Of a stretch of 64,000 nt of DNA, positions 28,722 to 42,653 are shown piece by piece (the first letter of the stretch is position 1; every line of letters starts with the position of its first letter). The position numbers and the translations under genes are program-made. This DNA is from Dickeya fangzhongdai (lineage in GTDB: Bacteria > Pseudomonadota > Gammaproteobacteria > Enterobacterales > Enterobacteriaceae): positions 930,001 to 994,000 of the forward strand of contig NZ_CP025003.1 in the NCBI RefSeq assembly GCF_002812485.1. Direction: 5' to 3'. A model generated the notes under the pieces. It worked only from the letters and a program-made list of their open reading frames with translations, was not told where the DNA came from and did not search any database.

Positions 28722-28892
28722 ATGTCCCACATCCTGATGGCCGCGGTGGCAACGCCGGGGCATGTTTATCCTATGCTGACCATTGCCCGTCATCTGCTGA
28801 CCAAAGGGCACCGGGTAACCCTGTTCAGCGGCGCGTTGTTTCGTGAGCAGGCGCAGGCCGCCGGCGTTGGATTTGTCGCGTTCGACGAACAG
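28722..28892 (+). pseudogene. GT1-family UDP-glycosyltransferase, 5' part (cut by transposon)
   Basis: The first 57 codons from ATG 28722 (MSHILMAAVATPGHVYPMLTI) are the N-terminal nucleotide-fold entry of macrolide/zeaxanthin-type glycosyltransferases. The reading is broken by the Tn3-family element after AACAG and resumes in the same frame at 41550. Any translation product would run about 11 codons into the transposon inverted repeat and stop. Confidence 0.9.
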
Positions 28893-28924
28893 GGGTCCGC
28901 TTGGAAAACGGAAATTATCCTACG

Positions 28925-31909
28925 CTAAGCCTGTTTTTTGTACATATTACTATTCACTGAGCGTAATGCGCGGTATTTACCCTGTCCCAGTTTGAGGTTC
29001 GTTCTCCAGACGTAATCCCCGCTCAGGTTGATATGTTCCCATCCCAGTGGTGACAGATGGGTAATCAGTTGCTCATTAATCGGGATCCCTTTTCGTCTCA
29101 AAGAATCTATCGCTCTTTCTATATATACCGTATTCCACAGTGAGATCGCCGCAGTCAGCAACGTCAGACCGCTGGCTCGATAGCTCTGATTCTCCAGCCC
29201 CCGATCTCTGATTTCACCCAGCCGATGCATAAAGACCGCTCGCGCAAGGGCATTGCGAGCCTCACCTTTATTCAGCCCCGCCTGTACGCGTCGACGCAGT
29301 AAAGGATCCCTGAACCAGTCCAGCATAAACAATGACCTTTCGATGCGGCCAATCTCTCTCAGCGCCTTTGCCAGACCATTCTGCTTCGGATAGCTTGCCA
29401 GCTTTTTCATCATCAGTGATGCTGTTACCGTTCCCTGCTTTATAGAACTTGCCAGACGCAGCACCTCATGCCAGTGGGTTTCAATTTCCTTTAGATTCAG
29501 GCTGGTTGTCGAGATGATTGACTGAAGCCCCTGATACAACTCAGCTTTTCCATGAATAAACAGCCGTTTGTCATGAAGATCCCGGATCCTTGGCGCAAAA
29601 GCGAATCCGAGCAGATGCATTAGCGCAAAAACATGCTCAGTGAAACCTGCTGTGTCGGTGTAATGCTCTGTAATTTCCAGATCAGTTTCGTGGTACAGCA
29701 GACCATCAAGTACGTGTGTTGAATCCCGCACGCGGCTGATAACTTTGGTGTAAAACGGGCTGTATTGGTCCGAAATATGCGTATAAATCTGCACGCCTGG
29801 ATCCTGACCGTATTTAAGATTGACCTGACCAGCATAACGCCCGTGACTCCCCACCCGAAAGTTCTGTCCATCAGACGATGACGTTGTTCCATCGCCCCAG
29901 AATGCCGCCAGAGGGCTTTTTTTCTGGGCATTGACCAACTCGGCCAGCGCAGCTGAATAGGTTTCATCCCTGATGTACCAGGCCTGAATGCCCTCGAGTG
30001 ACGATTTGGTCGTTCCCGGACAGGATTCGGCCATTTTTGTCAGTCCAAGGTTGATACCATCGGCCAGGATGGTGGTCAGTAACAACTTTCTGTCTTTAGG
30101 TCTGACGTGATTGTTTTTGAGATGTGTGAAATGGCGGGTAAAACCAGTCCAGCCGTCCACTTCATCCAGCATTTCAGTAATTTTAGGGTGAGGGAGCATG
30201 CCATAAACCAGATCGCCAAAAGGGGATGCTGCTGAAGGGACACTGTTATCCAGCGGGGTAATTTTCACGCCTTTATCCGATATATCAACATCGGGTAAAT
30301 CACCGGCCAGCGCCATCGCGTTAACTTCTTCCAGACGCGATGCAAGAAGCGTCAAACGGCTCTTGATGTATTCATGGCAATCGGCCGGAACAGCAAGGGG
30401 TAACTGGTTATCCCGGAGTGATTTTTCAAAATCGTCTGACGGGATCAGATAATCATCGAAATTCCTGTAGCGGCGTGACCCCTTTACCCAGATGTCACCT
30501 GAACGTAAGGCTCCCTTCAGTTCATTCAGCACGCAAAATTCGTAATATTTTCGGTCAATGCCGGTGGGGGTGATCACAACCTTTCTCCAGCTTTCCGGGA
30601 TGAACCCGATTGGCGCGGAAGGCGGTACTTTTCGGAGTTGTTTTCTATACATATCTCTGACGGTATCCAATGCGTCACTGAGCTGCATTGCGGCGGGTGC
30701 AGCCCTGAACTGCAACACGGACAGCATCCGGGGGGCGTATTTACGCAGCGTACTGTATTTTTCTGTGATCAGATGCAACGGGTCGAAGTTGTCCTTACGT
30801 GACAGGAACCGCGTCTCTTCCACGCTGTTGATGAATTCCTGCCAGGGAAGGACGTCTTCTATTGCGGCCCAGGGATCTTCCCCGGACTCTCTGGCGTTAA
30901 GTAATGCCTGTCCGACGGTAACGTATTGCTTCAGTTTACTCTGAATCAGCTTTCCCGTTTGCTGGAGCCGCTCGGCCTGAGTACGTTTTGCCCTGCTGAA
31001 CAGACTACTCAGAATACGCTCGTGCAGATCAATAACTTCGTCAGTCAGGGTGGATCTGGCCTCCGATATGATACAAACCAGCGAGGCATAACGGCGAACA
31101 TCCGTGAATCTTGCCAGATCCCGGCTACTCATTTTCCTGCCTTCGCGTGCGAGTTTCAGGAGTCGGTTCTGGTGAACGGAAAGTGCAATGCCGTCAGGGA
31201 GTGCCAGCGACTCAATCGCATTTAACCGGTCGATATGTTGCAGGACATTTTTACCATTAATTTTTCCCGGAGGCTGGAGCAGCCAGGCCAGCCGTGAAGG
31301 TTGCTCACCCTCAGATACCAACAGACGGTCCAGTGCCGCTTTATGCCCTGGTTCAAGCTGCGCGGTAAGCGCAGAAAAAACCGCCCTGTCGGCAAGTGTT
31401 GTTGCTTCGGCCAGGGTTCGTTCGATCACTTCAACAGAGGGGAAAATAACCTTATTATTGTGGAGCCAGGAGAGCATTTCCTCCGCAAGTAAAAAACCTC
31501 TGTCTGTCCGCATGGCGTGGGGATAAAGGTGGCGAATACAGGTTTTTTGCAGCGCCCGGTTAAAAGGGGATAATTCCAGGTAGCGGTAGAGTTCAGCCAG
31601 ATGTTCCCAGCGGGTGACCTCTCTTGATGCATACTCGGCCCACAAATCAGACTGGACTTTCAAATGAGCCGCCAGCCTGAAGACAACACAGTCGTGAGGT
31701 GAAATACTTTTGTCGGGAGGAAACCCTGGTCCTCGCAAATAACAGAGTAAAACTGCAAAGCCCAGACGGTTAGCTGGCCTGCGGTGTTTATTAATGAGCG
31801 CGAGGTCATGTTCACTCAGAAAGCACATGCGCGTCAGAAATACGTCATCATCCGGCACAATCAACAAGCGTTCTTTTTCTTCACTACTGAGCATTTGTCT
31901 CCGTGGCAT
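28925..31909 (-). CDS. tnpA: Tn3-family transposase TnpA
   Basis: Start at 31909 (MPRRQMLSSEEKERLL) gives 994 residues, normal for the family. Typical parts are the N-terminal DUF4158-like region (FLTRMCFLSEHDLALINKHRRPANRLGFAVLLCYLRGPG) and the DDE domain with FWGDGTTSSSDGQ, YTHISDQYSPFYTKVI and the late ALARAVFMHRLGEIRDR. Its stop codon lies inside the left inverted repeat. It appears intact, so the element may still move. Confidence 0.95.
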   Translation of the reverse strand: MPRRQMLSSEEKERLLIVPDDDVFLTRMCFLSEHDLALINKHRRPANRLGFAVLLCYLRGPGFPPDKSISPHDCVVFRLAAHLKVQSDLWAEYASREVTRWEHLAELYRYLELSPFNRALQKTCIRHLYPHAMRTDRGFLLAEEMLSWLHNNKVIFPSVEVIERTLAEATTLADRAVFSALTAQLEPGHKAALDRLLVSEGEQPSRLAWLLQPPGKINGKNVLQHIDRLNAIESLALPDGIALSVHQNRLLKLAREGRKMSSRDLARFTDVRRYASLVCIISEARSTLTDEVIDLHERILSSLFSRAKRTQAERLQQTGKLIQSKLKQYVTVGQALLNARESGEDPWAAIEDVLPWQEFINSVEETRFLSRKDNFDPLHLITEKYSTLRKYAPRMLSVLQFRAAPAAMQLSDALDTVRDMYRKQLRKVPPSAPIGFIPESWRKVVITPTGIDRKYYEFCVLNELKGALRSGDIWVKGSRRYRNFDDYLIPSDDFEKSLRDNQLPLAVPADCHEYIKSRLTLLASRLEEVNAMALAGDLPDVDISDKGVKITPLDNSVPSAASPFGDLVYGMLPHPKITEMLDEVDGWTGFTRHFTHLKNNHVRPKDRKLLLTTILADGINLGLTKMAESCPGTTKSSLEGIQAWYIRDETYSAALAELVNAQKKSPLAAFWGDGTTSSSDGQNFRVGSHGRYAGQVNLKYGQDPGVQIYTHISDQYSPFYTKVISRVRDSTHVLDGLLYHETDLEITEHYTDTAGFTEHVFALMHLLGFAFAPRIRDLHDKRLFIHGKAELYQGLQSIISTTSLNLKEIETHWHEVLRLASSIKQGTVTASLMMKKLASYPKQNGLAKALREIGRIERSLFMLDWFRDPLLRRRVQAGLNKGEARNALARAVFMHRLGEIRDRGLENQSYRASGLTLLTAAISLWNTVYIERAIDSLRRKGIPINEQLITHLSPLGWEHINLSGDYVWRTNLKLGQGKYRALRSVNSNMYKKQA

Positions 31910-31989
31910 AAATGCTTCCCCTGCACATAGTTCATTAAAGTTATCATTCGCACTGACCGAAACCGGTCGGTTTCGTACACCGCTTACAG

Positions 31990-32062
31990 CAAATGTCCGA
32001 AACTTAGTGAAATTAATTTCGGACACACGTTATAATTCGGACACCTATTTCGTACGGAAAGT
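31990..32062. promoter_or_regulatory. res site and divergent tnpA/tnpR promoters
   Basis: TGTCCGAAA (31994-32002) and TTTCGGACA (32017-32025) are inverted copies, and a third ATTCGGACAC follows at 32035-32044, all in the gap between tnpA and tnpR. Multiple inverted resolvase half-sites here define a Tn3-type res region, where TnpR also represses both genes. Confidence 0.75.
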
Positions 32063-32067
32063 TTCCC

Positions 32068-32652
32068 ATGTCACGTGTTTTTGCCTACTGCAGGGTCTCA
32101 ACTCTGGAACAGACCACAGAAAACCAGCGTCGTGAAATTGAAGCGGCGGGTTTTGCCATCAGATCCCAACGACTTATTGAGGAGCATATCAGTGGCTCGG
32201 TTGCTGCCAGCGAACGCCCCGGATTTATCCGGTTGCTAGATCGCATGGAAAATGGGGATGTACTGATTGTCACCAAACTTGACCGTCTGGGTCGTAATGC
32301 GATGGATATCCGAAAAACAGTAGAGCAACTGGCGGCTTTAGATATTCGCGTTCATTGTCTCGCACTCGGAGGCGTTGACTTGACCAGTCCGGCCGGAAAA
32401 ATGACTATGCAGGTAATTTCTGCTGTAGCGGAGTTTGAGCGGGATTTGCTGCTTGAGCGAACGCATTCAGGTATTGCGAGGGCAAAAGCGGCTGGAAAAC
32501 GCTTCGGTCGCCCTCCCATCCTGAGCGAGGAACAAAAGCAAACAGTGACAGAGCGCCTAAATGCTGGCATCAGTATCAGTGCTATTGCCCGGGAATTTAA
32601 TACCACCCGCCAGACTATCCTTCGGGTAAAGGCTGGATTGCTGCAAGAGTGA
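32068..32652 (+). CDS. tnpR: Serine resolvase TnpR
   Basis: The 194-residue protein has the serine recombinase catalytic domain with YCRVST (nucleophile Ser11), DRLGRNAMD and [26 protein letters not shown]-terminal Hin-like HTH follows ([21 protein letters not shown]). It resolves cointegrates at res. It is divergent from tnpA. Confidence 0.95.
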
Positions 32653-32768
32653 GCGGCTGGGAAGATTATAAAAAAATCAAATGGTTATTATGAAATAAAA
32701 CAGCCTTCTGGGTTCTTTTCCCCCTATTTTTTATAAAAGAGTAGACAAAAGAGGTTCGCGATATTAAC

Positions 32769-32786
32769 CTACCAACTAGATGGTTG
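32769..32786. promoter_or_regulatory. Operator O1 of the transposon regulon (osmC promoter)
   Basis: CTACCAACTAGATGGTTG matches 17 of 18 positions of the palindrome CTACCA(A/T)CTAG(A/T)TGGTAG found at all four cargo promoters. It lies 50 bp before the osmC-like gene. Confidence 0.8.
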
Positions 32787-32836
32787 GCACTGATTACACC
32801 AGCTATAACTTTTATCAAGAAATTACAGGAGCCATT

Positions 32837-33394
32837 ATGTCTACTACCGTTAAACCTTCTGCAGACGCAGCTGCGATCCACAATACCCGTGAAGCAGTTC
32901 GCAGCCAGCCTGGCCTGGGTAACCTGACTTTCCAGATGAAAGCCCGTTCCAGCGGCGGATTAACCGTTCGCACAGAGACCGGCGCCACAATCCAGAACGG
33001 CGTTATCGATACCAGCCGCGTGGGGAAATTTTCTAATATCGGTGATGAACCCGCAGGTTTACTCGGCACCGATACCGGCATGAGCCCGACTGAATACATC
33101 ATGCAGGCGCTGGCTGGCTGTTATACCGCCACCCTCACCATGATGGCTGCTGAAAAAGGGATCGACCTGGACGGTATCGAGCTGGATCTTAATTTCGATA
33201 TCAACCTCAACGGCTTCCTTGGGCTGGACAGCAACGTGCGTAAAGGTGCGAAATCTATTCGCGTCGATGTTCACCTTACGAGCAAGACCGCCAGTCGCGA
33301 GGAGTTAGAAGCGCTGGTCAGCGAAATGCAAAAGAATTCGCCAATCCACGATACTCTGGCTAATCCGGTTGAAATGATTACACGCCTGGCGTGA
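32837..33394 (+). CDS. OsmC-family protein
   Basis: ATG 32837 follows CAGGAGCC. The 185 residues have the OsmC fold markers: SPTEYIMQALAGCYTATLTMMAAEKGIDLDG and HDTLANPVEM. Cys95 sits at the first conserved position, but the usual second Cys is Ser (NSPIHDTL), so a classical two-Cys peroxidase cycle is not supported. A single-Cys thiol role, with help from the transposon's thioredoxin or AhpD, is a possibility. First cargo gene, its own operator upstream. Confidence 0.88.
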   Translation: MSTTVKPSADAAAIHNTREAVRSQPGLGNLTFQMKARSSGGLTVRTETGATIQNGVIDTSRVGKFSNIGDEPAGLLGTDTGMSPTEYIMQALAGCYTATLTMMAAEKGIDLDGIELDLNFDINLNGFLGLDSNVRKGAKSIRVDVHLTSKTASREELEALVSEMQKNSPIHDTLANPVEMITRLA

Positions 33395-33500
33395 TGTCAG
33401 AGATGTAATGCTGCCATTCAGAATGCAGGATGGCAGTGACGTTCAGCTCTGCACGATACTGAGTCAGTGATACAACTTGCTACGGAAAAATAGCAACAAT

Positions 33501-33524
33501 ATAATCTATCAACTAGTAGATTAT
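33501..33524. promoter_or_regulatory. Operator O2 of the transposon regulon (tetR promoter)
   Basis: ATAATCTA and TAGATTAT are perfect 8-bp arms around TCAACTAG. The inner CTATCAACTAGT resembles the other operators, with the shared CTAG centre but more divergent flanks (12 of 18). It lies 12 bp before the tetR start, which fits autorepression. Confidence 0.75.
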
Positions 33525-33535
33525 ATGGAGTAATT

Positions 33536-34117
33536 ATGACAACCATGACACGGGAACGGCTGCTCAGCGAAGCAGAACACCTGATGCGCGAAAAAGGGTA
33601 TTCAGCATTCAGCTATGCTGATTTATCAAAAATAGTGGGTATCACCAAGGCCAGTATTCATCACCATTTCCCGACCAAAGATATTCTGGGTGAGCAGGTG
33701 GTAATACAGGCGTTCTCTGATACGCAACGCGTATTTGAGCAGATAGAGGCTACTGAGAAAAGCGCGGAGAAAAGAATTGCGGCCTACATCGATATCTTCG
33801 CGCAAAGCCATAAAGCTTCACTACTGCCACTGTGTTGTGCGTTGTCAGCGGAGACCGCCAATCTGCCTCAGGCAATTACTGTACAGACATCACTTTATTT
33901 CGATATGCAAATCGAGTGGCTCACAAAAGTCGTCAGGGCGGGCATGGAGTCAGGTGAGTTTTCATCCCATGCCGAACCATCAGATATTGCTTTGATGATC
34001 ATTAATGTCTGTGAAGGCTCAAGCGTAGTGGCGCATGCAACGGCCAGACCCGAAGTCTTCACCAACAGCCTTAAGTATATAAAACTGCTTCTTAATACCC
34101 CACATTCAGGAGAATGA
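33536..34117 (+). CDS. TetR-family repressor of the cargo genes
   Basis: ATG 33536 follows GGAGTAATT. The 193-residue protein has an N-terminal TetR HTH (YSAFSYADLSKIVGITKASIHHHFPTKDIL) and a helical ligand domain with three Cys in the body, one pair near residues 99-100 (LPLCCALSAE). Such thiols could sense oxidants or electrophiles directly, as NemR does. It is followed at 4 bp by the ahpD-like gene. It is the only regulator on the element and the likely reader of the four shared operators. Confidence 0.9.
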   Translation: MTTMTRERLLSEAEHLMREKGYSAFSYADLSKIVGITKASIHHHFPTKDILGEQVVIQAFSDTQRVFEQIEATEKSAEKRIAAYIDIFAQSHKASLLPLCCALSAETANLPQAITVQTSLYFDMQIEWLTKVVRAGMESGEFSSHAEPSDIALMIINVCEGSSVVAHATARPEVFTNSLKYIKLLLNTPHSGE

Positions 34118-34121
34118 CACT

Positions 34122-34460
34122 ATGCTGGACTGGAACAACTATCGCTCAGAGTTAATGCAACGTTTAGGCGAGTTGGGCAAACTGACCCCCGAGACCATGA
34201 AAGGCGTGGTTGCCCTGGGCAACGCAGGTAACAAAACTGACCTTTTAGGCGCAAAAGTGCGTGAACTCATTGCCCTGGCGTGCGCAGTCACAACTCGCTG
34301 CGACGGCTGCATTGCTTTTCACGCCGACGCCGCTGTGAAAGCCGGTGCAACCGACGCTGAAATTGCTGAAGCGCTGGGCGTGGCGATTAACCTCAACGCT
34401 GGCGCTGCGGTCATTTATTCAGCCCGCACTCTGGATGCCGTCGGTCAGGCACGCGGTTAA
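34122..34460 (+). CDS. AhpD-like carboxymuconolactone decarboxylase family protein
   Basis: The 112 residues show the AhpD core with C60-D-G-C63 and His67 (TTRCDGCIAFHADAAVKAGAT). This is the redox-active CxxC-x3-H of alkylhydroperoxidase D-like proteins. Members reduce peroxides or recycle thiol partners. It is co-transcribed with tetR (4-bp gap, AGGAG site) and ends at a terminator. Confidence 0.9.
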   Translation: MLDWNNYRSELMQRLGELGKLTPETMKGVVALGNAGNKTDLLGAKVRELIALACAVTTRCDGCIAFHADAAVKAGATDAEIAEALGVAINLNAGAAVIYSARTLDAVGQARG

Positions 34461-34479
34461 GTATTAATAAATTCCACGT

Positions 34480-34505
34480 TAAAAGGGCATTACTGCCCTT
34501 TTTTT
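34480..34505. terminator. Bidirectional terminator between ahpD-like and thioredoxin genes
   Basis: AAAAGGGCA and TGCCCTTTT pair around TTAC, with T or A runs at both sides. It overlaps the 3' end of the thioredoxin gene. Confidence 0.9.
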
Positions 34506-34819
34506 ATGTCCGTAATCGCCTGAGCATATACCGATGCAGGTTTCACACCCGGTATGCGTTTAACTAATTGCCCTTCATGAAATATCAGCACAGACGGTAG
34601 CCCCCAGATCTCGTATTTGGTTGTCAGCACCGGTGCCTGATCTACATTGACTTTCCCCACCTGTATATCTCCATCGAGCCGGTCTGCAAACTGGCTGAAC
34701 ATCTCTTCGCTGGCCTGACAGGGCGGACACCAGGGCGCAGAAAAACGTACCACCGATATACCCTTGTACTGTTCTATCTGGCGAAAATTATCTTCGTTAT
34801 AGGATGTTAACGTACGCAT
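34490..34819 (-). CDS. Thioredoxin-fold protein
   Basis: Start at 34819 (MRTLTSYNEDNFRQI) gives 109 residues. The active site is C31-P-P-C34 in VRFSAPWCPPCQASEEMF, and the cis-Pro loop is WGLPSVLIF. CPPC instead of CGPC should alter the redox potential. No signal peptide is seen, so it is cytoplasmic. It faces the old yellow enzyme gene across operator O3 and probably reduces partner proteins encoded on the element. Confidence 0.92.
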   Translation of the reverse strand: MRTLTSYNEDNFRQIEQYKGISVVRFSAPWCPPCQASEEMFSQFADRLDGDIQVGKVNVDQAPVLTTKYEIWGLPSVLIFHEGQLVKRIPGVKPASVYAQAITDIKKGQ

Positions 34820-34895
34820 GGTGATGACCTCGAAAAATGAGTGACGATTCAGAAAAGGCAGCATTAAGACAAAAAAACACGGCATGCCCATTGAC

Positions 34896-34913
34896 CTACC
34901 TACTAGACGGTTG
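34896..34913. promoter_or_regulatory. Operator O3 of the transposon regulon (divergent trx / oye)
   Basis: CTACCTACTAGACGGTTG matches 15 of 18 consensus positions, including the CTAG centre, and lies between the divergent thioredoxin and old yellow enzyme genes. Confidence 0.75.
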
Positions 34914-35031
34914 GTATATTGCCACCCATCAGATGTTTATGCAACTCCAGTGCGCGACGTCCGGTCGGTGATACTACCGGGCTGTACAAATCCCTGTCGG
35001 GATACTCCTTTTTGTTTCTGTGAGGTATACG

Positions 35032-36138
35032 ATGAGTAAGCTTTTCACCCCCTACAATCTGTCTGGCCTGGCGTTAAAAAACCGTGTAGTCATGGCACCG
35101 ATGACCCGCACCCGCACCATGAATGACGTGCCGGATGAGGTCGTGGCTTTGTACTATGCACAGCGTGCTTCTGCTGGCCTGCTCATCACCGAAGGGATGC
35201 CGGTTTCAGAAGAAGGCCGGGGTTACCTCTATACCCCTGGTATCTACAACGACGAACACGTCCAGGGCTGGCGTAAGGTGACACAAGCGGTTCACGCCAA
35301 AGGTGGCCGTATTTTCGCGCAGCTCTGGCACGTCGGCCGTATGTCTCACGTCTCTCTTCAGCCAGGCCACATAGCGCCGGTTTCAGCGGGCACCGTTCAG
35401 GCGGTCAATACCACCGTTTTTGCGCTGACCGAATCCGGAGAACCGGGCCCGGTTGTACCAAGCCAGCCACGCGCGCTGGAAACGCATGAAGTGAAACGCA
35501 TCACGGCAGACTTCGCGCACTCCGCGCGCCTGGCGATGGAAGCCGGTTTTGACGGCGTGGAAATCATGGCGGCAAACGGATTCATCTTTGACCAGTTCCT
35601 CAGTAGCGAACTGAACACCCGCACCGACGAATACGGCGGTTCGGTGGAAAACCGTCAGCGTTTCCTGCTGGAGACCATTGACGCCGTGGCGGAAGCCGTG
35701 GGTAACAGCCACGTTGCCGTGCGCCTGTCACCGTTCGGCCGCATTTATGACCTCGCGCCGTATGAAGGTGAAGATCAAACCTGGTCAGCCATCACCGACG
35801 CGCTCGGTCAGCGGGAGCTGGCCTACGTACACCTTTACTATCAGCCGGTGTACACCAAAGCGCCACTTCCGGAAGGATTCCGCCGCCGTTTTCGCAACAC
35901 GTTTAAAGGCACCATCATCGCTGCCGGCGGTTTTACCCGTGATATCGCAGAGCAGGCTCTGGAAGATGATGAGCTGGATCTGGTGGCATTTGGTGTGCCC
36001 TACATCGCTAACCCGGATCTGGTTGAAAGAATGCAAAACGGCTGGCCGCTGGCTGAAAGTGACCGCGCCACCTACTACGGCGTCAGTGGTTCCCCGGAAA
36101 AAGGCTATACCGATTACCCGGTCTGGCAGGCGCAATAA
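35032..36138 (+). CDS. Old yellow enzyme family flavin oxidoreductase with altered active site
   Basis: ATG 35032 follows TGAGGTATAC. The 368-residue protein has the OYE/NemA barrel: KNRVVMAPMTRTRT, AQLWHVGRMSH, LNTRTDEYGGSVENRQRF and AAGGFTRDIAEQAL. The substrate-binding pair and proton donor, usually H-x-x-N-x-Y or H-x-x-H-x-Y, here read M179-A-A-N182-G-F184. So the His and the proton-donating Tyr are both lost. FMN binding looks intact. Reduction of a thiosulfinate, disulfide or nitro group, which needs less proton delivery to carbon, is a reasonable guess; ordinary ene reduction would be impaired. Confidence 0.92.
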   Translation: MSKLFTPYNLSGLALKNRVVMAPMTRTRTMNDVPDEVVALYYAQRASAGLLITEGMPVSEEGRGYLYTPGIYNDEHVQGWRKVTQAVHAKGGRIFAQLWHVGRMSHVSLQPGHIAPVSAGTVQAVNTTVFALTESGEPGPVVPSQPRALETHEVKRITADFAHSARLAMEAGFDGVEIMAANGFIFDQFLSSELNTRTDEYGGSVENRQRFLLETIDAVAEAVGNSHVAVRLSPFGRIYDLAPYEGEDQTWSAITDALGQRELAYVHLYYQPVYTKAPLPEGFRRRFRNTFKGTIIAAGGFTRDIAEQALEDDELDLVAFGVPYIANPDLVERMQNGWPLAESDRATYYGVSGSPEKGYTDYPVWQAQ

Positions 36139-36203
36139 ATCCCATACGGTCGCGGTTCTCTGATAAGTGAGATCCGACCGCCCAAGGTCTTTGAGGAATC
36201 ATT

Positions 36204-36905
36204 ATGCAAACGCTGAAACCCACCCTTACCATCGATATCTGGTCAGATTTGGTCTGCCCGTGGTGCTGGATTGCTAAAAAAAAATTTGAACAGGGTCTGA
36301 ATCGCTTTGAATTTCGCGACCAGGTGGTGATCCGCCATCACAGCTACCGTCTGGCCGGTGGTACTCCCGCGATGCCTTTTAAGGATGCCATCGTTAAAAA
36401 GCTGGGCAGTCAGCATTCAGCGGATCTGATGATGAATCAGGTAGGTACTGCCGGTAGGTCTGAAGGCCTGATCTACAACTTCGACGGCATGATGTTTGGT
36501 GATACAGAAGATGCACATACCCTGCTGGTTGCTGCGCGTAAGGCCGGAATTGCGGACGCGGTGGAAGAACGTTTTTATCACGGCAGTATCACCGAAGGTC
36601 GCTCTCTCTTTGATCGTCAGCAGCTCGTTGCAATGGCCGTAGAAGCCGGTATGCCGAAAGCTGACGCTGAAGCCGCCCTGGAAAATGATGATTTTCGCGC
36701 CACCGTTTCCGACGATGAAGCGCATGCACAGTCTATTGGCCTCAGCGGTGTTCCGGTTTTTGTGATGAACGAAAAATATGCCATCAGCGGGGCTCAGGCA
36801 GCAGATAACTTTTTGAATGCCCTGCGTCAGGTATGGGATGAACAGCAAACCGAATTTTCAGCCACTGCGGGTCAGACCTGCGGAACGGATGGCTGCAGTA
36901 TTTAA
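36204..36905 (+). CDS. DsbA/FrnE-family thiol oxidoreductase
   Basis: The 233 residues contain the DsbA-like active site C18-P-W-C21 (WSDLVCPWCWIAKKKF) without a signal peptide. The helical insert and cis-Pro loop SGVPVFVMNEKYAISGAQAADNFLNAL are typical of cytoplasmic FrnE/2-hydroxychromene isomerase-like proteins. The C-terminus ends TCGTDGCSI, adding a CxxxxC pair. Second gene of the operon after the old yellow enzyme, probably handling mixed disulfides. Confidence 0.9.
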   Translation: MQTLKPTLTIDIWSDLVCPWCWIAKKKFEQGLNRFEFRDQVVIRHHSYRLAGGTPAMPFKDAIVKKLGSQHSADLMMNQVGTAGRSEGLIYNFDGMMFGDTEDAHTLLVAARKAGIADAVEERFYHGSITEGRSLFDRQQLVAMAVEAGMPKADAEAALENDDFRATVSDDEAHAQSIGLSGVPVFVMNEKYAISGAQAADNFLNALRQVWDEQQTEFSATAGQTCGTDGCSI

Positions 36906-36970
36906 TCCGTCAACCGCCGGCAGTTTCACTATGCCGGCAACGTCTTACCCACCAGTAATGGAGTCAGAAA

Positions 36971-37744
36971 ATGAACACTTTTTTCAAAGGTAAAAAACTG
37001 CTCGTCGTCGGCGGTACCAGCGGCATGGGTCTGGCCGTCGCACGTATGGTACTGGAAGCGGGCGGCAGTGTCGTGCTGACCGGGAATAAAAAAGACAAAG
37101 CCGAAGCGGTGCAAAAAGAACTGAGCCCTCTGGGACCGGTTGCGGTCATCGCGGCGAACCTGATGACCGAAGAAGGTATGGAAACTATCCGTCGGGAAAT
37201 TAATGCCCGCCACCGCGATATCAGCCTGATGGTGAATGCCGCCGGGATCTTCATGCCGAAAGGCTTTACCGAGCACAGCTTTGCCGATTATGACATGTAT
37301 CTTGCGCTGAACCGCGCCACGTTCTTTATTACGCAGGATGTCGTGAAGAACATGCTTGCCGCGAAGATCGAAGGGTCTATCGTCAATGTCGGTTCGATTG
37401 GCGCCCAGGCAGCACTCGGTGACTCGCCGGCCTCGGCCTATTCAATGGCAAAAGCGGGTCTGCATGCCCTGACGCGTAATCTGGCGATTGAGCTGGCCAG
37501 CGCGGGTATTCGTGTCAACGCTGTGTCTCCCGGGATTGTTCATACGCCGATATACGAAGGCTTCATGGACAAAGCGGATATCGCAGATGCTATGAAGTCG
37601 CTGAACGATTTCCACCCGCTGGGACGCGTCGGAACTGCCGAAGATGTGGCAAACACTATTCTCTTCCTGTTGTCTGACAAAACCTCATGGGTGACGGGCG
37701 CTATCTGGGATGTCGATGCGGGCATCATGGCGGTCAGACGATAA
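36971..37744 (+). CDS. Short-chain dehydrogenase/reductase
   Basis: The 257 residues show the classical SDR fold: GGTSGMG nucleotide motif at 14-20, NAAG, catalytic Ser in VGSIGA, and Y157-SMA-K161, with the SPGIVHTPIYEG loop. The substrate is unknown; relatives reduce carbonyls with NAD(P)H. Last gene of the oye-dsbA-sdr operon, followed by a terminator. Confidence 0.92.
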   Translation: MNTFFKGKKLLVVGGTSGMGLAVARMVLEAGGSVVLTGNKKDKAEAVQKELSPLGPVAVIAANLMTEEGMETIRREINARHRDISLMVNAAGIFMPKGFTEHSFADYDMYLALNRATFFITQDVVKNMLAAKIEGSIVNVGSIGAQAALGDSPASAYSMAKAGLHALTRNLAIELASAGIRVNAVSPGIVHTPIYEGFMDKADIADAMKSLNDFHPLGRVGTAEDVANTILFLLSDKTSWVTGAIWDVDAGIMAVRR

Positions 37745-37763
37745 CCCCGTGACGCTGGCATAA

Positions 37764-37790
37764 GCCGCCCCTTAAGGGCGGCATTTTTTT
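37764..37790 (+). terminator. Terminator after the SDR gene
   Basis: GCCGCCC and GGGCGGC pair around CTTAA or similar, then T7. Confidence 0.9.
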
Positions 37791-37929
37791 GTCGCCAGAA
37801 ATGTCATCAGCAGGCTTCACTAAGAATATTCACGATCTGTTCATCCGTGCCTTTTGTGTTCCCGGCACAGGGTGTTATGCCGGGTTCTGACGACATCCTG
37901 ACAGGACAAAACGGCCAGAGAGAAAGGGG

Positions 37930-39153
37930 TTATACACGATGAGGAGCCGGTATCCGCAGTACCTGTGAAATTCTTTTCATCCCTGCTGTCAGCATACTCC
38001 GTGGGCAGGCCAGATTTAACCGGATATATCCGTCCCCATTGTCGACAAACAGCAAGCCCCCTTCAAGAAGGACCCCTGACTCCCGGGCAAAATACAGCGA
38101 TAAATCCTCACCTGCGGTGTCGGGCAGGTAGCGGCTAATATCTATCCAGGCCAGATATGTCCCTTCGGGGATCGAGAACCTGGTTTCGGGTAAATAGCTT
38201 TTGAGATAGTCGTGCAGGTACTGGAAATTTCCGTCAATATATTCCCTCAGATGGACAAGCCAGTCATCACATTCACTCCACGCCGCTTTGTTTGCTGCCA
38301 GGCTCAGCGGAGAGATGAACTCGTCGTGTCTGAGACGCCACTCGCTTCTGACACCGGGATCCGGAATAATGATATTTGCCAACAAATTCCCGGCCAGATT
38401 GAATGTTTTACTCGAGGACATGCAGGTAATAATGCGTGTGGAATCAGGGAAAAGAGAGGCGGCCGGTGTATGACCGATGCCGCTTCGGGACAGGTCGCAG
38501 TGAATTTCGTCAGATACCACCCAGATGTCATTGGCCAGGCAAATTTCAATAATCCGCTTAAGTTCATCAGGCCGCCAGACTCGTCCGGTCGGGTTATGCG
38601 GATTACACAGGAAAAGAATTTTCACACGTAAATCGGCCTGACTGGCTTTGCGTGCAAAGTCTTCCCAGTCAGGTTCCCAGCCGCCTGCTGATTTTTTTAA
38701 CGCCGAGTACACCACGCGACGCTGACTGTATTCACCCGCCTTTTTAAACGGGCCATATGAAGGCGTCATGATAAGAATACTGTCATCCTTGTCGGTCAGA
38801 AGCGGGACGAGACGGTTCAGCGCGGGAATAATGCCCGGAGACAGCACAATGTCTTCCGTTTTGAAACGGTGACCATATTGTCGCTCACACCAGCTGCCAA
38901 AGATCTCATAGTATTCTTCGTCGTAGATTTTAGTGTAGCCGAGTATTTTTCTATCCAGACGGTCTCTGATGGCCTGAAGAATCGGCTCTGGTGTGGCAAA
39001 AGCCATGTCAGCAACCCAGAGGTTGATTAGCCCTTCTGCCGGATACCGCATTGCAAATTCGGACTGTCCCGAAAACAGGTATTCCCGCCAGCCGTCCACG
39101 GTGAGACTGTCTGTTTTCTCTCTGCTTACGTACCCATCAAAATCATATTTCAT
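37930..39153 (-). CDS. PLP-dependent C-S lyase/aminotransferase (MalY/PatB-like)
   Basis: The 407-residue fold-type I enzyme begins YDFDGYVSREKTDSLTVDGW and carries LWVADMAFATPEPI, NPHNPTGRVW, Asp215 in VVSDEIHCDLS and the PLP lysine K249 in SSSKTFNLAGN. MalY and PatB cleave cystathionine, cysteine S-conjugates and similar C-S bonds. In a thiol-stress cassette this suits breakdown of cysteine conjugates such as S-allyl or mixed-disulfide adducts. It lies 133 bp downstream of the EamA gene on the same strand and may share its promoter. Confidence 0.9.
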   Translation of the reverse strand: MKYDFDGYVSREKTDSLTVDGWREYLFSGQSEFAMRYPAEGLINLWVADMAFATPEPILQAIRDRLDRKILGYTKIYDEEYYEIFGSWCERQYGHRFKTEDIVLSPGIIPALNRLVPLLTDKDDSILIMTPSYGPFKKAGEYSQRRVVYSALKKSAGGWEPDWEDFARKASQADLRVKILFLCNPHNPTGRVWRPDELKRIIEICLANDIWVVSDEIHCDLSRSGIGHTPAASLFPDSTRIITCMSSSKTFNLAGNLLANIIIPDPGVRSEWRLRHDEFISPLSLAANKAAWSECDDWLVHLREYIDGNFQYLHDYLKSYLPETRFSIPEGTYLAWIDISRYLPDTAGEDLSLYFARESGVLLEGGLLFVDNGDGYIRLNLACPRSMLTAGMKRISQVLRIPAPHRV

Positions 39154-39286
39154 TTCATAAACCTGCCTTAGGTGTAGTCAGAAACGTCGACCTCAGTATT
39201 CCTGTCAGTCTGATGCCGGAGCGGGAAAACTGGCTCGTGTGATTAACATAAGAGAATCATCACAACTGCATGAATTAATTGCGTTA

Positions 39287-40156
39287 TTAAGGTTTTCTCG
39301 CCTTTGTCATCGGCTGACGGGGGGATTTCTCGCGTGTCACCATCACAATGCCAGTCAGCACCGCCAGGGCAGAAAATATCGTTCTGACCGTCAGTGATTC
39401 ATCCAGGAATACCACACCCCCTAGCATTGCCAGACAGGGAACGCTGAGCTGAAGGGTACTGGCGGTGATAGAGCCGAGAGAGGGTAAAAGGGTATACCAC
39501 AATACATATGCACCGGCTGAGGCGGCGGCACCGGACAGCAATGACAAAGCAATGCCCGCAGCATCATAGTGACCCTGCTTCATAAACAGCAACGAAAGAG
39601 CGAGAGCCATCGGCGTGGCGAGTACAAAATTTGCCGCCGTTGAAGCCCCGGCCGCCTGGCCCGCCCTCCCCCTGACGGAATAGGCGGCCCAGGCTAATCC
39701 GGCAACGATCATCATAAGTGCACTGTAAAGCGGCGGTGCCTTCGCCCCGGGTAACAGCAGGGCAGCAATTCCCGTCAGAGCCAGAACTAAACCGCCAGCC
39801 CGCATAGCGGAGAGTGATTCTCCTTTGAATAATCCGTGGATCACCATCGCAAACTGTACGGCACCAAAAAGTAACAGCGCACCCGCCCCGGTATCGAGAT
39901 GGATATAGGCGACAGAGAACAGCACCGCATACGCCATGAGGTAAAACCCGCTCAGCGGACGCCACAGGGATAATGTGGTCCTGGCGTGATAAAAGAGGAA
40001 GGGGGACAGGACGAATGCACCACTGGCCAGCCTGAGGCTGCTGAATGAAAGGGGATCAATGTGACCTCCCTGCAGGGCCAGACGACACAGAATGGAGTTT
40101 GCCGCAAATGCCAGCATTGCCACTGATATTTTAAGAATGAGCGCGCACCTGGCCAT
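39287..40156 (-). CDS. EamA/DMT-family exporter
   Basis: Start at 40156 (MARCALILKISVAMLAFAANS), behind GAGGACTTCTC, is preferred to an ATG at 40192 that lies in the operator. The 289 residues form about ten helices in two EamA repeats (AFAANSILCRLALQGGHIDPLSFSSLRL; AYSVRGRAGQAAGASTAANFVLATPMALALS). DMT exporters release metabolites such as amino acids and cysteine derivatives. Together with the C-S lyase it may clear products of conjugate breakdown. Confidence 0.9.
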   Translation of the reverse strand: MARCALILKISVAMLAFAANSILCRLALQGGHIDPLSFSSLRLASGAFVLSPFLFYHARTTLSLWRPLSGFYLMAYAVLFSVAYIHLDTGAGALLLFGAVQFAMVIHGLFKGESLSAMRAGGLVLALTGIAALLLPGAKAPPLYSALMMIVAGLAWAAYSVRGRAGQAAGASTAANFVLATPMALALSLLFMKQGHYDAAGIALSLLSGAAASAGAYVLWYTLLPSLGSITASTLQLSVPCLAMLGGVVFLDESLTVRTIFSALAVLTGIVMVTREKSPRQPMTKARKP

Positions 40157-40185
40157 TCGAGAAGTCCTCACAAAAGTCTTGTAAA

Positions 40186-40203
40186 CTACCATCTAGTTGG
40201 TAG
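40186..40203. promoter_or_regulatory. Operator O4 of the transposon regulon (divergent eamA / hydrolase)
   Basis: CTACCATCTAGTTGGTAG is an 18-bp palindrome with one mismatched pair, the best copy of the set. It lies 30 bp upstream of the EamA start and 195 bp before the hydrolase gene. Confidence 0.85.
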
Positions 40204-40397
40204 CATAGCGTAAGTGATCACCGAACAGGAAGCAATAATCAGCTTTCAAACTGGAAGGTGAGGACAGGCATTCGGAATGAATTCTTTTTCACATCCACAG
40301 TGGAGGACGGAAAACGCGCTATGCCAGATGCAGAGCAGAAGACTATTTTTCTCCTGCGATCAAACATATGACATCAGTTTAAGGCCCGGAATATCCT

Positions 40398-41150
40398 ATG
40401 AAAAAACTAAAATTTACGTTCAAAAATGCGGCGGGTGAAGAACTGGCCGGATTGCTTGAACTTCCTGAAAATCCTAAAGCGTTTGCGCTGTTAGCTCATT
40501 GTTTTACGTGTGGCAAAGACCTCAAAGGCGCGGCGCGTATTGCGCGGAAACTGACAGAGAATGCTATCGCCGTTCTCCGGTTTGATTTTACTGGTCTGGG
40601 AAACAGCGAAGGGGATTTTTCCAACACCAACTTCTCATCCAATATTTCGGACCTGCTTTGCGCGGTAGATTATCTCCGCCGACAGTACGAAGCGCCTTCT
40701 TTGCTCATCGGTCATAGCCTGGGTGGATCGGCCATCCTGTCTATCGCCGGCGAAGTTCCTGAGGCAAAGGCCGTTGTCACCATAGGATCACCCGGAGAAC
40801 TGACACACGTAAAACGTCTTTTTAAGGATGATGTTGAAAACATTAACCAGCATGGAGCCTATCCGGTTGAGCTGGCCGGGCGGGTATTTACGTTAAAGAA
40901 ACAGATGCTGGACAATATTCAGGAACACAAAATCGCTCATAAGGTGTTCGCCATGAACAAGCCTCTGCTGATTTTTCATGCGACTGAAGATGATACCGTG
41001 TTAATTGAGCAGGCCGAGAAAATATTCAAAGCAGCTAAGCATCCCAAGAGTTTCATTTCCCTGGGTAAGGCTGATCACCTTCTGACACATGCTCAGGATG
41101 CTGAATACGTTGCCGATATCATTATCTCGTGGAGCGAATGTTACCTATAA
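40398..41150 (+). CDS. Alpha/beta hydrolase (domain usually fused to OsmC)
   Basis: The 250 residues contain LLAHCFTCGKDLKGAARIARKL, RFDFTGLGNSEG, the nucleophile elbow GHS107LGG, and the Asp and His regions HATEDDTV and GKADHLL. This text closely resembles the N-terminal half of the roughly 400-residue hydrolase-OsmC fusion proteins of proteobacteria. Here the protein stops at SWSECYL and the OsmC half is absent, while a separate OsmC gene lies at the other end of the cargo. Confidence 0.88.
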   Translation: MKKLKFTFKNAAGEELAGLLELPENPKAFALLAHCFTCGKDLKGAARIARKLTENAIAVLRFDFTGLGNSEGDFSNTNFSSNISDLLCAVDYLRRQYEAPSLLIGHSLGGSAILSIAGEVPEAKAVVTIGSPGELTHVKRLFKDDVENINQHGAYPVELAGRVFTLKKQMLDNIQEHKIAHKVFAMNKPLLIFHATEDDTVLIEQAEKIFKAAKHPKSFISLGKADHLLTHAQDAEYVADIIISWSECYL

Positions 41151-41184
41151 ACAGAGTAAATGCGTTCAAACTCGTAGCGCTGAG

Positions 41185-41500
41185 GGCGATTTTCTGCAGA
41201 GATCGGACGCTGTTTATGCTGGACTGATTTTGCGATAAAGGCTTAGGCCGATGCATACAGGCGGGGCTGAATAAGGGTGAGGCCCTTGGGCGAGCATCCT
41301 TCATGCACCGGCTGAATGAAATCAGGGATCTGGGGGTGGGAGGATCAGCGTTACCACGCCACCGGCGCTGACACTACATACGGCGGCGATAACACTCTGG
41401 AATACGGTTTATATAGAAAGAACCATTGAGCCGCTTAAGCAAAAAGGAGTCCCTGTTAATGAACTGCTGGTCTCTCATCCTTCTCCACTACTGTACAAAA
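41185..41500 (+). pseudogene. Decayed tnpA 3' tail next to the right inverted repeat
   Basis: The plus strand contains degraded copies of the TnpA C-terminal text: GAGATCGGACGC, QAGLNKGEA, then ASFMHRLNEIRDLG and the DNA of LWNTVYIER, with frameshifts, small deletions and stops. It runs in the opposite direction to the intact tnpA but has the same relation to its nearby inverted repeat. So the cargo is bracketed by two tnpA-end modules, one intact and one dead. Confidence 0.85.
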
Positions 41501-41549
41501 TATAGTCTTAGCGTGGGATAATTTCCGTTTTCCAAGCGGACCCCAACAG

Positions 41550-42653
41550 ATCGATTTTGACTACCGCTACCTGGAACGCCATTTTCCCAAACGCGCCACT
41601 CTGCCGCCCGGCAACGCGCAGATGGCGCTGGCGCTGCGCGAATTCTTTTCCGCGCCTATCCCGTTGATCGACCGACAATTGCGCGCGGTGCTGGCGCAAA
41701 CTCAGCCGGACGTAGTGATGGCGGAAAACTGTTTCTACGGCATTCTGCCGCTGCTGGCCAGCGAGGATCGCCCGCCGGTGATCGGCATCGGCGTGACGCC
41801 GCTGTCTTTCTCTTCCCGCGATTCGATCTTTTACGGGCCGCGTATTCCGCCTGCGCTGTTGCCGCCGGATTTGACCCGCGAGCAACTGATCGACGAAGAG
41901 ACCCGCGGGCTGATCGCCGGCGTGAAGGAGGCGTTCGATACGGTGATGGTGCAGTCGGGACAGCTGCCGCTATCCGCACCCTTTACCGACGCGCTGATCA
42001 GCGGTTGCGACCGCTTCCTGCAATTGTCCACCACCGAACTGGAATATCACCGCGATGATTTGCCGTCGTGCGTACGCTTTGTGGGGCCGTTACCGTTGAA
42101 GGTGGCGGAACAGGACGCGGAACACGCGCTGTGGGATCCACAGGACACCCGGCCGCTGGTGATTGTGTCGCAGGGAACGCTGGCGAATGTGGATTTGCAG
42201 CAATTGATTGGCCCGACATTACGCGCGCTGGCTAATCTGCCCGTTCGGATGCTGGCGACCACCGGCGGCCGACCGGTGGAAGAACTGGCCGCCTCGGCGC
42301 CGGAAAACGCGCGGGTATGCCGCTTTGTCTCGCTGGAACACTGGTTGCCGAAGGCGGCGCTGCTGATTACCAACGGGGGATACGGTTCGCTCAACGCGGC
42401 GTTGTCTCACGGCGTGCCGTTGATTGTGGCCGGAACGGGAGAAGACAAACTGGAAACCGCGGCGAGAGTGGTGTTTGCCGGCTGCGGGTTGAATCTCGGC
42501 ACCAGCACGCCGGGCGAGCAGCAGATTGCCGAGGCGGTGATGCGCATCCTCGATCAACCCGGTTATACCCAGCGGGCGCGTTGGGTACAGGCGGACTGCG
42601 CGCGTCATCATGCGCTGGAGGCGATCGCGGAAGAAGTGGGGGCGATCGGGTAA
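41550..42653 (+). pseudogene. GT1-family UDP-glycosyltransferase, 3' part
   Basis: Continues the frame broken at 28892 (IDFDYRYLERHFPKRATL), giving 424 residues when joined. The C-terminal domain has VIVSQGTLANVDLQQLIGPTLRAL and the donor-binding region HWLPKAALLITNGGYGSLN, then GVPLIVAGTGEDK, as in MGT/zeaxanthin glucosyltransferase relatives. The intact enzyme would transfer a sugar from UDP to a small acceptor. Codon use matches the host backbone, unlike the transposon. Confidence 0.9.

What the first reader, a model, noticed from the sequence alone, without database searches (positions are those of the whole stretch)
28893..41544. Self-contained thiol/electrophile defence cassette on a Tn3-family transposon, resembling allicin (thiosulfinate) tolerance clusters
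Ten cargo genes all belong to thiol and redox families: OsmC, AhpD (CxxC), Trx (CPPC), OYE, DsbA/FrnE (CPWC), SDR, MalY/PatB C-S lyase, EamA exporter, hydrolase and one TetR. From general knowledge, the alt cluster of onion-pathogenic Pantoea ananatis and the allicin-resistance islands of Pseudomonas PfAR-1 are built from the same families. Here the set lies between intact Tn3-type ends with a 5-bp duplication and an intact transposase and resolvase, so it could travel as one unit. It suggests exposure to Allium or other sulfur-electrophile plants.
Basis: partly seen in the sequence, partly recalled or inferred. Interest (0 to 1): 0.9.

Follow-up and report, generated by a model that had tools for sequence, protein, structure and literature searches.

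The report
Allicin-tolerance-type genes on a transposon
A plant-rotting bacterium carries, inside a self-moving piece of DNA, a set of genes related to those that let onion pathogens survive the sulfur poisons of garlic and onion, and near-identical copies of the set sit on hundreds of sequenced plasmids, many from human and wastewater bacteria.

Summary
Window 28893-41544 is a complete Tn3-family transposon with ten cargo genes. Nine are orthologues of the allicin-tolerance (alt) cluster of the onion pathogen Pantoea ananatis PNA 97-1R (57-88% identity); six of these keep its order and orientation. All seven genes shared by the three validated alt clusters are present. The TetR protein has AltR's three cysteines at positions 100, 101 and 159. 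Four AltR-type operators precede the cargo transcription units (0.08 expected by chance).

The host is almost certainly Dickeya fangzhongdai JS5T from a pear tree (exact chromosome size), so Allium exposure is not supported for this strain, although the species also rots onion. The transposon interrupts a glycosyltransferase gene. Three other copies examined each have a different 5-bp target duplication.

The cargo core lies at 80% coverage or more on 471 of 72,556 plasmid records and in 114 of 5,426 complete E. coli genomes. Of 60 plasmid rows listed, 30 name humans, 10 water or sewage, none Allium. None of the papers listed in my searches describes an alt cluster as a transposon. The phenotype is inferred from orthology, not shown.

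Best reading: a transposable, AltR-controlled thiosulfinate-tolerance module. Why it spread among clinical plasmids is open.

The parts
28888..28892 (.). left copy of 5-bp target-site duplication AACAG
   Evidence: uninterrupted site in same-genus genomes
28893..28929 (+). left terminal inverted repeat (37 of 38 bp; one G short)
28925..31909 (-). tnpA, Tn3-family transposase (994 aa, start by comparison with the annotated copy in L003)
31910..32067 (.). tnpA-tnpR intergenic region, presumed res site; the place where tnpA modules change between copies
   Evidence: identity to L003/L065 jumps from about 75% to 92-100% near 31950; res itself inferred
32068..32652 (+). tnpR, serine resolvase
32765..32786 (+). 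AltR-type operator upstream of osmC
32837..33394 (+). osmC (altJ by inference)
   Evidence: start as annotated in homologue L003
33502..33523 (+). AltR-type operator (core of a perfect 10-8-10 palindrome, 33499-33526) just before altR
33536..34117 (+). altR, TetR-family regulator with Cys100, Cys101, Cys159
34122..34460 (+). ahpD / carboxymuconolactone decarboxylase family (altE), CDGC
34490..34819 (-). thioredoxin-like (altD), CPPC; longer ORF to 34891 possible
   Evidence: start as in homologue L003
34896..34917 (+). AltR-type operator in the divergent trx/oye intergenic region
35032..36138 (+). alkene / N-ethylmaleimide reductase, OYE family (altA)
   Evidence: start as in homologue L003
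36204..36905 (+). DsbA/FrnE-family oxidoreductase (altC), CPWC
36971..37744 (+). SDR oxidoreductase (altB)
37930..39153 (-). PatB-type PLP C-S lyase (altI)
39287..40156 (-). EamA/DMT exporter (altH)
   Evidence: start as in homologue L003
40182..40203 (+). AltR-type operator upstream of eamA
40398..41150 (+). alpha/beta hydrolase; also present in the EcWSU1 and Pectobacterium polonicum alt-type clusters
41177..41489 (+). decayed 3' end of a second, inverted tnpA (pseudogene fragment)
41507..41544 (-). right terminal inverted repeat, 38 bp
41545..41549 (.). right copy of target-site duplication AACAG
28722..28892 (+). 5' part of the interrupted host glycosyltransferase gene
41550..42653 (+). 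3' part of the interrupted host glycosyltransferase gene

Best explanation
A Tn3-family unit transposon whose cargo is a complete alt-type thiosulfinate-tolerance cluster.

Proposed working: AltR represses its own and the cargo promoters. A thiosulfinate modifies AltR Cys100 and relieves repression. AhpD, DsbA/FrnE and thioredoxin reduce mixed disulfides on proteins and small thiols. OYE and SDR reduce electrophilic products. OsmC handles organic peroxides or persulfides. PatB cleaves S-conjugates and EamA exports thiol products. The hydrolase's role is unknown.

Shown here: gene content, orthology, synteny, conserved cysteines and operators, low dN/dS, and mobility (four distinct insertion sites with target duplications). 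Inferred from P. ananatis and PfAR-1 work: inducer and phenotype. The enzyme-by-enzyme steps are my inference from family knowledge. The transposon probably formed when two related, inversely oriented Tn3-type elements bracketed an alt cluster and the right-hand one decayed (inferred from the residual tnpA end).
For: Nine cargo proteins are 57-88% identical to P. ananatis PNA 97-1R alt; altR-ahpD-trx(-)-oye-dsbA-sdr has the same order and orientation. Cargo AltR is 69% identical to P. ananatis AltR, above the 35-47% similarity published among AltRs of the three validated clusters (a different alignment method). All seven genes shared by the three validated clusters (altA, B, C, E, R, I, J) are present. 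Cys100/101/159 are conserved and Cys100 is the sensing residue in PMC13178969. Four operator matches, expected 0.08, 0 of 100 shuffles with 4 or more; such boxes occur in all 16 other alt loci scanned. In PfAR-1, ahpD or dsbA alone raises allicin resistance; altC/altE pairs from diverse clusters raised thiosulfinate tolerance. Nei-Gojobori dN/dS 0.01-0.15 against P. polonicum (10 genes) and Buttiauxella (8 genes). Target duplications AACAG, TTGTC, TATTA and TTATT in four copies.
Against: No tolerance assay. gor and the second thioredoxin-like gene of P. ananatis alt are absent from the element. The host strain came from pear, and none of the 60 listed plasmid records names Allium. Genome-wide, the operator pattern has 5 places against 7 for the reversed-pattern control, so only its clustering in the element is informative. 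Not every promoter keeps a close box in every cluster: P. polonicum altR, the EcWSU1 trx/oye genes and E. persicina eamA have only two-mismatch boxes, and one EcWSU1 match lies inside an unrelated gene. Some copies have lost patB and part of eamA (L007, L009, L021), so not all ten genes are needed everywhere. dS is above 2 for altR and ahpD against P. polonicum, so those ratios are rough.
Confidence: 0.85

Rival explanations
1. The cassette is a general reactive-electrophile or oxidant defence (bleach, quinones, NEM-like compounds, hypothiocyanite), and thiosulfinates are only one of several inducers. This would better fit its abundance on human and wastewater plasmids.
For: AltR is described as NemR-like, and the OYE scores best against the N-ethylmaleimide reductase model, though below its cut-off (361 of 403 bits). 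Of 60 plasmid rows listed, 40 are human or water and none Allium.
Against: P. ananatis AltR was de-repressed by allicin and methicin but not by NEM, diamide or H2O2, and PfAR-1 clusters did not protect against H2O2 or NEM (PMC13178969). The cysteines and operators here match that AltR.
Confidence: 0.15
2. In clinical plasmids the transposon is a neutral passenger that spread with successful plasmids and is not currently selected. This is compatible with the best explanation of what the genes do.
For: IS4321/IS5075 sits at one or both ends of four plasmid copies (L006, L007, L085, L086), which probably hinders transposition. The patB-eamA deletion allele occurs in three loci. Antibiotic-resistance genes lie within 14-15 kb in 2 of 5 records looked at for this (L007 and L085 of L007, L084-L087).
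Against: 471 records hold 80% or more of the core (open frames were not checked record by record). dN/dS between the window and the Kosakonia copy is 0-0.28 over ten genes, on few changes. The Dickeya copy is chromosomal; whether the Vibrio, Tatumella and Kosakonia replicons carry resistance genes was not checked.
Confidence: 0.3
3. The copy in this genome is a non-functional relic.
For: The left inverted repeat lacks one G.
Against: All twelve ORFs are open, active-site cysteines are present and four operators are present.
Confidence: 0.04

Closest known systems
alt cluster of Pantoea ananatis PNA 97-1R (NZ_CP020945.2, L036)
   Same: Nine orthologous genes; six-gene block in identical order and orientation; AltR Cys100/101/159; operators before osmC, altR, the trx/oye pair and eamA.
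   Different: P. ananatis also has gor and a second thioredoxin-like gene, lacks the hydrolase, keeps osmC next to gor-patB-eamA, and shows no TnpA or TnpR hit in the 19.3-kb stretch fetched.
alt-type cluster of Enterobacter ludwigii EcWSU1 (pEcWSU1_A, L037)
   Same: All ten cargo families, 61-89% identity, including the hydrolase; named as an alt homologue in PMC7988079.
   Different: Interleaved with LysR, 6-phospho-beta-glucosidase, AraC and YbhB genes; a second thioredoxin; no TnpA or TnpR hit.
Ten-gene cluster of Pectobacterium polonicum (L012)
   Same: Same ten genes in the same order, 82-97% identity: the nearest non-transposon form with all ten genes that I saw.
   Different: Lies among conjugative-element-type genes (TraI_2 relaxase, ArdC-like), without tnpA or tnpR in the 20.6 kb fetched.
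Allicin-resistance regions of Pseudomonas PfAR-1
   Same: Shared families osmC, sdr, tetR, dsbA, trx, oye, ahpD.
   Different: kefC, kefF and 4-ot are absent here; sequences not compared.
Near-identical Tn3 elements on Enterobacterales plasmids (e.g. NZ_CP063426.1, L003)
   Same: Full length at 94% identity; same right end with decayed tnpA.
   Different: tnpA only 77-87% identical per 500-bp bin; the change lies at the presumed res site.

Membership tests
alt (thiosulfinate-tolerance) cluster | The seven genes shared by the three validated clusters (altA, B, C, E, R, I, J) | tested here: met
   7 of 7 present; gene list, letter-to-product mapping (altJ = osmC inferred), homology
alt (thiosulfinate-tolerance) cluster | Orthology rather than shared fold families | tested here: met
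   57-88% identity to P. ananatis for nine genes; 15 of 15 genome loci with TetR identity of 60% or more have ahpD next to altR; the 13 weaker loci were not examined
alt (thiosulfinate-tolerance) cluster | AltR with the essential Cys100 | tested here: met
   Cys100, 101 and 159 at the same positions (paper)
alt (thiosulfinate-tolerance) cluster | AltR operators at cluster promoters | tested here: met
   4 found, 0.08 expected; binding itself not tested
alt (thiosulfinate-tolerance) cluster | Confers tolerance to thiosulfinates | not testable with these tools
   needs an assay
alt (thiosulfinate-tolerance) cluster | gor and second thioredoxin-like gene (in P. ananatis; gor not in B. gladioli) | tested here: not met
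   absent from the element; not shared by all validated clusters, so not treated as defining
Tn3-family transposon | TnpA with Tn3 DDE domain, serine resolvase, ~38-bp repeats beginning GGGG, 5-bp duplication | tested here: met
   left repeat one G short
Tn3-family transposon | res site between tnpA and tnpR | tested here: inconclusive
   module-change breakpoint lies there; the site itself was not mapped
PfAR-1 resistance region | kefF-kefC and 4-ot within the congruent set | tested here: not met
   none among the cargo; not filed here

The most novel reading that the evidence does not exclude
Thiosulfinate tolerance has become an autonomous mobile trait. A Tn3-family alt transposon circulates among human, animal, water and plant Enterobacterales and beyond (Vibrio), is kept functional by exposure to Allium organosulfur compounds in food, gut, feed or sewage, and gives the plasmids that carry it an advantage there, resistance plasmids included.
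Probability: 0.35. Interest if true: 0.85.

Novelty: new variant of a known kind. Interest (0 to 1): 0.62.

Why it matters
alt clusters have been studied as virulence traits of onion pathogens, with the puzzle that they look horizontally acquired yet are kept within genera (PMC12306174). A transposon carrying the whole module gives a concrete vehicle for transfer. Its abundance on clinical and wastewater plasmids makes testable whether dietary or environmental thiosulfinates select for plasmids, and how a soft-rot pathogen acquires genes against Allium chemistry.

Tried and rejected

Limits: structure prediction, Rfam and the large protein database were not used because orthology was already clear. 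PfAR-1 and B. gladioli sequences were not fetched. A search of 58 relatives with the whole cargo DNA matched 29, but apart from the window's own genome and G028 (several cargo genes at 67-73%) these were single short or partial matches, mostly in the OYE gene. Eight paper searches touched on alt clusters, transposons or plasmids; I saw only the listed rows (2 to 20 per search, titles and starts of abstracts), and none describes an alt cluster as a transposon. PMC12306174 has no word beginning 'transpos' in its main text but reports K. pneumoniae and E. coli hits, so its authors may hold this cluster without having noted the transposon.
Full report
1. What is there. Window 28893-41544 is flanked by inverted repeats (53-nt arms, 92% complementary) and a 5-bp duplication AACAG. 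The insertion splits a glycosyltransferase gene (28722-28892 and 41550-42653). In genomes G003, G007 and G008 of the same genus the two flanks align as neighbours overlapping by 3-5 bases, i.e. without the element; in G006 they lie within a few bases. The other four genus genomes had no match to the right flank.

2. Host. The assembly has 5,032,447 bases in two contigs; contig 2 is 5,284 bases and matches plasmid pLN1 of Dickeya fangzhongdai at 99.8% (E. coli and Salmonella plasmids match it at about 99% too). The remainder, 5,027,163 bases, equals the size given for D. fangzhongdai JS5T, pear tree, China, 2009 (PMC6329079 Table 1, passages seen). That paper notes a region at 0.9 Mb present only in JS5 among its strains; the element lies at 958,893-971,544 and may be part of it. 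The species is also reported from onion and Welsh onion (PMC9649655, passages). AltR itself is found in 1 of 9 genus genomes, the window's own (weak TetR paralogues in seven others, none in one), and at E <= 1e-40 in 7 of 391 family genomes, the window's own included.

3. Orthology with alt. Against P. ananatis PNA 97-1R (L036): osmC 71%, altR 69%, ahpD 88%, trx 75%, oye 80%, dsbA 67%, sdr 87%, patB 61%, eamA 57%. The block altR-ahpD-trx(-)-oye-dsbA-sdr is collinear. The letters altA (alkene reductase), altB (SDR), altC (DsbA), altD (thioredoxin), altE (carboxymuconolactone decarboxylase family), altH, altI and altR come from PMC8417944 (passages); altJ = OsmC is my inference. The seven genes shared by the three validated clusters (PMC12306174, section read in part) are all present. 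gor and the second thioredoxin-like gene are absent. All ten genes occur in EcWSU1 (61-89%; named as an alt homologue in PMC7988079, passages) and, in the same order, in Pectobacterium polonicum (82-97%), there among conjugative-element-type genes and with no TnpA or TnpR hit. Of 28 genome-collection loci found with AltR, 15 have 60% identity or more and all 15 carry ahpD beside altR; the other 13 are 29-38% relatives and were not examined for context.

4. Regulation. AltR has cysteines at 100, 101 and 159, as published for P. ananatis AltR, and L036, L037, L012, L011 and L003 keep all three. The published operator consensus with at most one mismatch occurs four times in the window, upstream of osmC, altR, trx/oye and eamA (expected 0.08; 0 of 100 shuffles reach 4). 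Genome-wide there are five places, four of them these, against seven for the reversed-pattern control; the clustering, not the total, is the signal. Such boxes occur in all 16 other alt loci scanned (2-5 matches each, some overlapping in register; one of the 16, L003, is a copy of this element, and one EcWSU1 match lies inside an unrelated gene). Some promoters keep only two-mismatch boxes: P. polonicum altR, EcWSU1 trx/oye, E. persicina eamA. The spacer is partly conserved (A at position 10 in 26 and T at position 13 in 22 of 30 distinct boxes from 8 loci), which fits the authors' suggestion that the 'AltR box' and 'IR2' are one operator but does not prove it.

5. Selection. dN/dS of the cargo genes is 0.013-0.145 against P. 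polonicum (10 genes; dS above 2 for altR and ahpD) and 0.012-0.091 against Buttiauxella (8 genes; patB and the hydrolase had no match there). Against L036 two genes and against L037 four genes had saturated dS and no ratio.

6. Mobility and make-up. Copies in Kosakonia (TTGTC), Tatumella (TATTA) and Vibrio furnissii (TTATT) have their own duplications. In these three copies tnpR and cargo are 92-100% identical to the window per 500-bp bin while tnpA is about 77-87% identical; the change lies near 31950, between tnpA and tnpR, as expected for exchange at res (inference). In Enterobacter ECL352 tnpA is 86-93% identical, and in Citrobacter freundii pRHBSTW-00355_2 the tnpA-tnpR stretch is 99.8% identical. 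The right end holds a decayed inverted tnpA 3' end in all seven transposon loci compared for it (L003, L006-L010, L021), which suggests formation from two inversely oriented related transposons around an alt cluster (inference).

7. Distribution. Full query: 65 of 1,539 matching plasmid records hold 80% or more in one place; most of the other matches are to the tnpA-tnpR part, which alone matches 1,413 records. Core 33395-37744: 536 of 72,556 plasmid records match and 471 hold 80% or more; by identity 22 at >=99%, 480 at 95-99%, 1 at 90-95%, 16 at 80-90%, 17 at 60-80%. In complete E. coli genomes 122 of 5,426 match, 114 with 80% or more; 108 places on plasmids, 22 on chromosomes. Of the 60 rows listed (spread over the ranking; four of them, H235 and H237-H239, are other alt types or a fragment), 30 name Homo sapiens or human, 10 water or sewage, one sprouts, none Allium. 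By contrast, of 16 records holding 80% or more of the Pantoea-type cluster, 10 name Allium cepa. Public plasmid collections are biased towards clinical isolates. Within 14-15 kb of the cassette, 2 of 5 records looked at for this carry antibiotic-resistance genes (L007, L085), one more carries arsenic genes (L086) and two show neither (L084, L087).

8. Function. Shown elsewhere, not here: PfAR-1 ahpD and dsbA each raise allicin resistance (PMC7119367, section read); altC/altE pairs from diverse genera raise thiosulfinate tolerance of a P. ananatis alt deletion (PMC12306174, section read); AltR answers thiosulfinates but not NEM, diamide or H2O2 (PMC13178969, discussion read in part). I infer the same for this cassette.

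9. Novelty. alt clusters are known; the transposon form is not described in any paper listed by eight searches of an open-access library (listed rows only, by title and abstract start). The library misses most subscription journals, among them the 2020 study by Stice et al. that described the P. ananatis and E. ludwigii clusters (cited; the DOI I recalled was not held). PMC12306174 reports K. pneumoniae as the predominant species for one recovered cluster, which may be this one. Its main text has no word beginning 'transpos', nor has PMC7988079; PMC13178969 has one, about a reporter construct.

Noticed in passing
L060 (contig C2, 5,284 bases): The genome's second contig is a small plasmid; its 99.8% match pLN1 (L064) is typed mobilizable and annotated with the Kiwa anti-phage gene kwaA and a kwaB-like gene.
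   Followed up: partly
L005, L017, L019, L020, L022, L037: A second alt type in Klebsiella, Raoultella, Enterobacter, Serratia and Rahnella with the same core genes; the annotated copies L005 and L037 have LysR, 6-phospho-beta-glucosidase, AraC-type and YbhB genes interleaved.
   Followed up: partly
L012:9049-17879: Pectobacterium polonicum carries the same ten genes in the same order without the transposon, next to a TraI_2 relaxase gene, i.e. probably on a conjugative element: a candidate donor type.
   Followed up: partly
L006, L007, L085, L086: IS4321 or IS5075 lies at one or both ends of these plasmid copies; in L006 and L007 the alignment to the window stops about 20 bp inside both ends, i.e. 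within the inverted repeats, which probably hinders transposition.
   Followed up: partly
window 37952-39805 (deleted in L007, L009, L021): Three loci share the same deletion removing patB and part of eamA, so these two genes are dispensable in some lineages.
   Followed up: partly
L006:12462-17560: In Enterobacter ECL352 patB is split by a block annotated as an ExeA-like ATPase, an IS481-type transposase, a recombinase and a few cargo genes; a similar block is annotated in L084.
   Followed up: no
L066:10001-20015: A Leclercia plasmid from garlic rhizosphere soil carries a transposon with closely related tnpA-tnpR (96.7%) next to chromate and arsenic genes; no OsmC, AhpD-type, alkene reductase or DsbA gene is annotated in the 23.7 kb fetched.
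   Followed up: no
L036, L004, L015, L016 and other alt loci: The AltR box and the so-called IR2 box may be one operator with a partly conserved spacer, found before osmC, altR, trx/oye and eamA across alt clusters.
   Followed up: partly
L075, L076 (G346, G267): AltR homologues at 80-82% identity in two family genomes are reported with one TAA inside the matched stretch; cause not examined.
   Followed up: no
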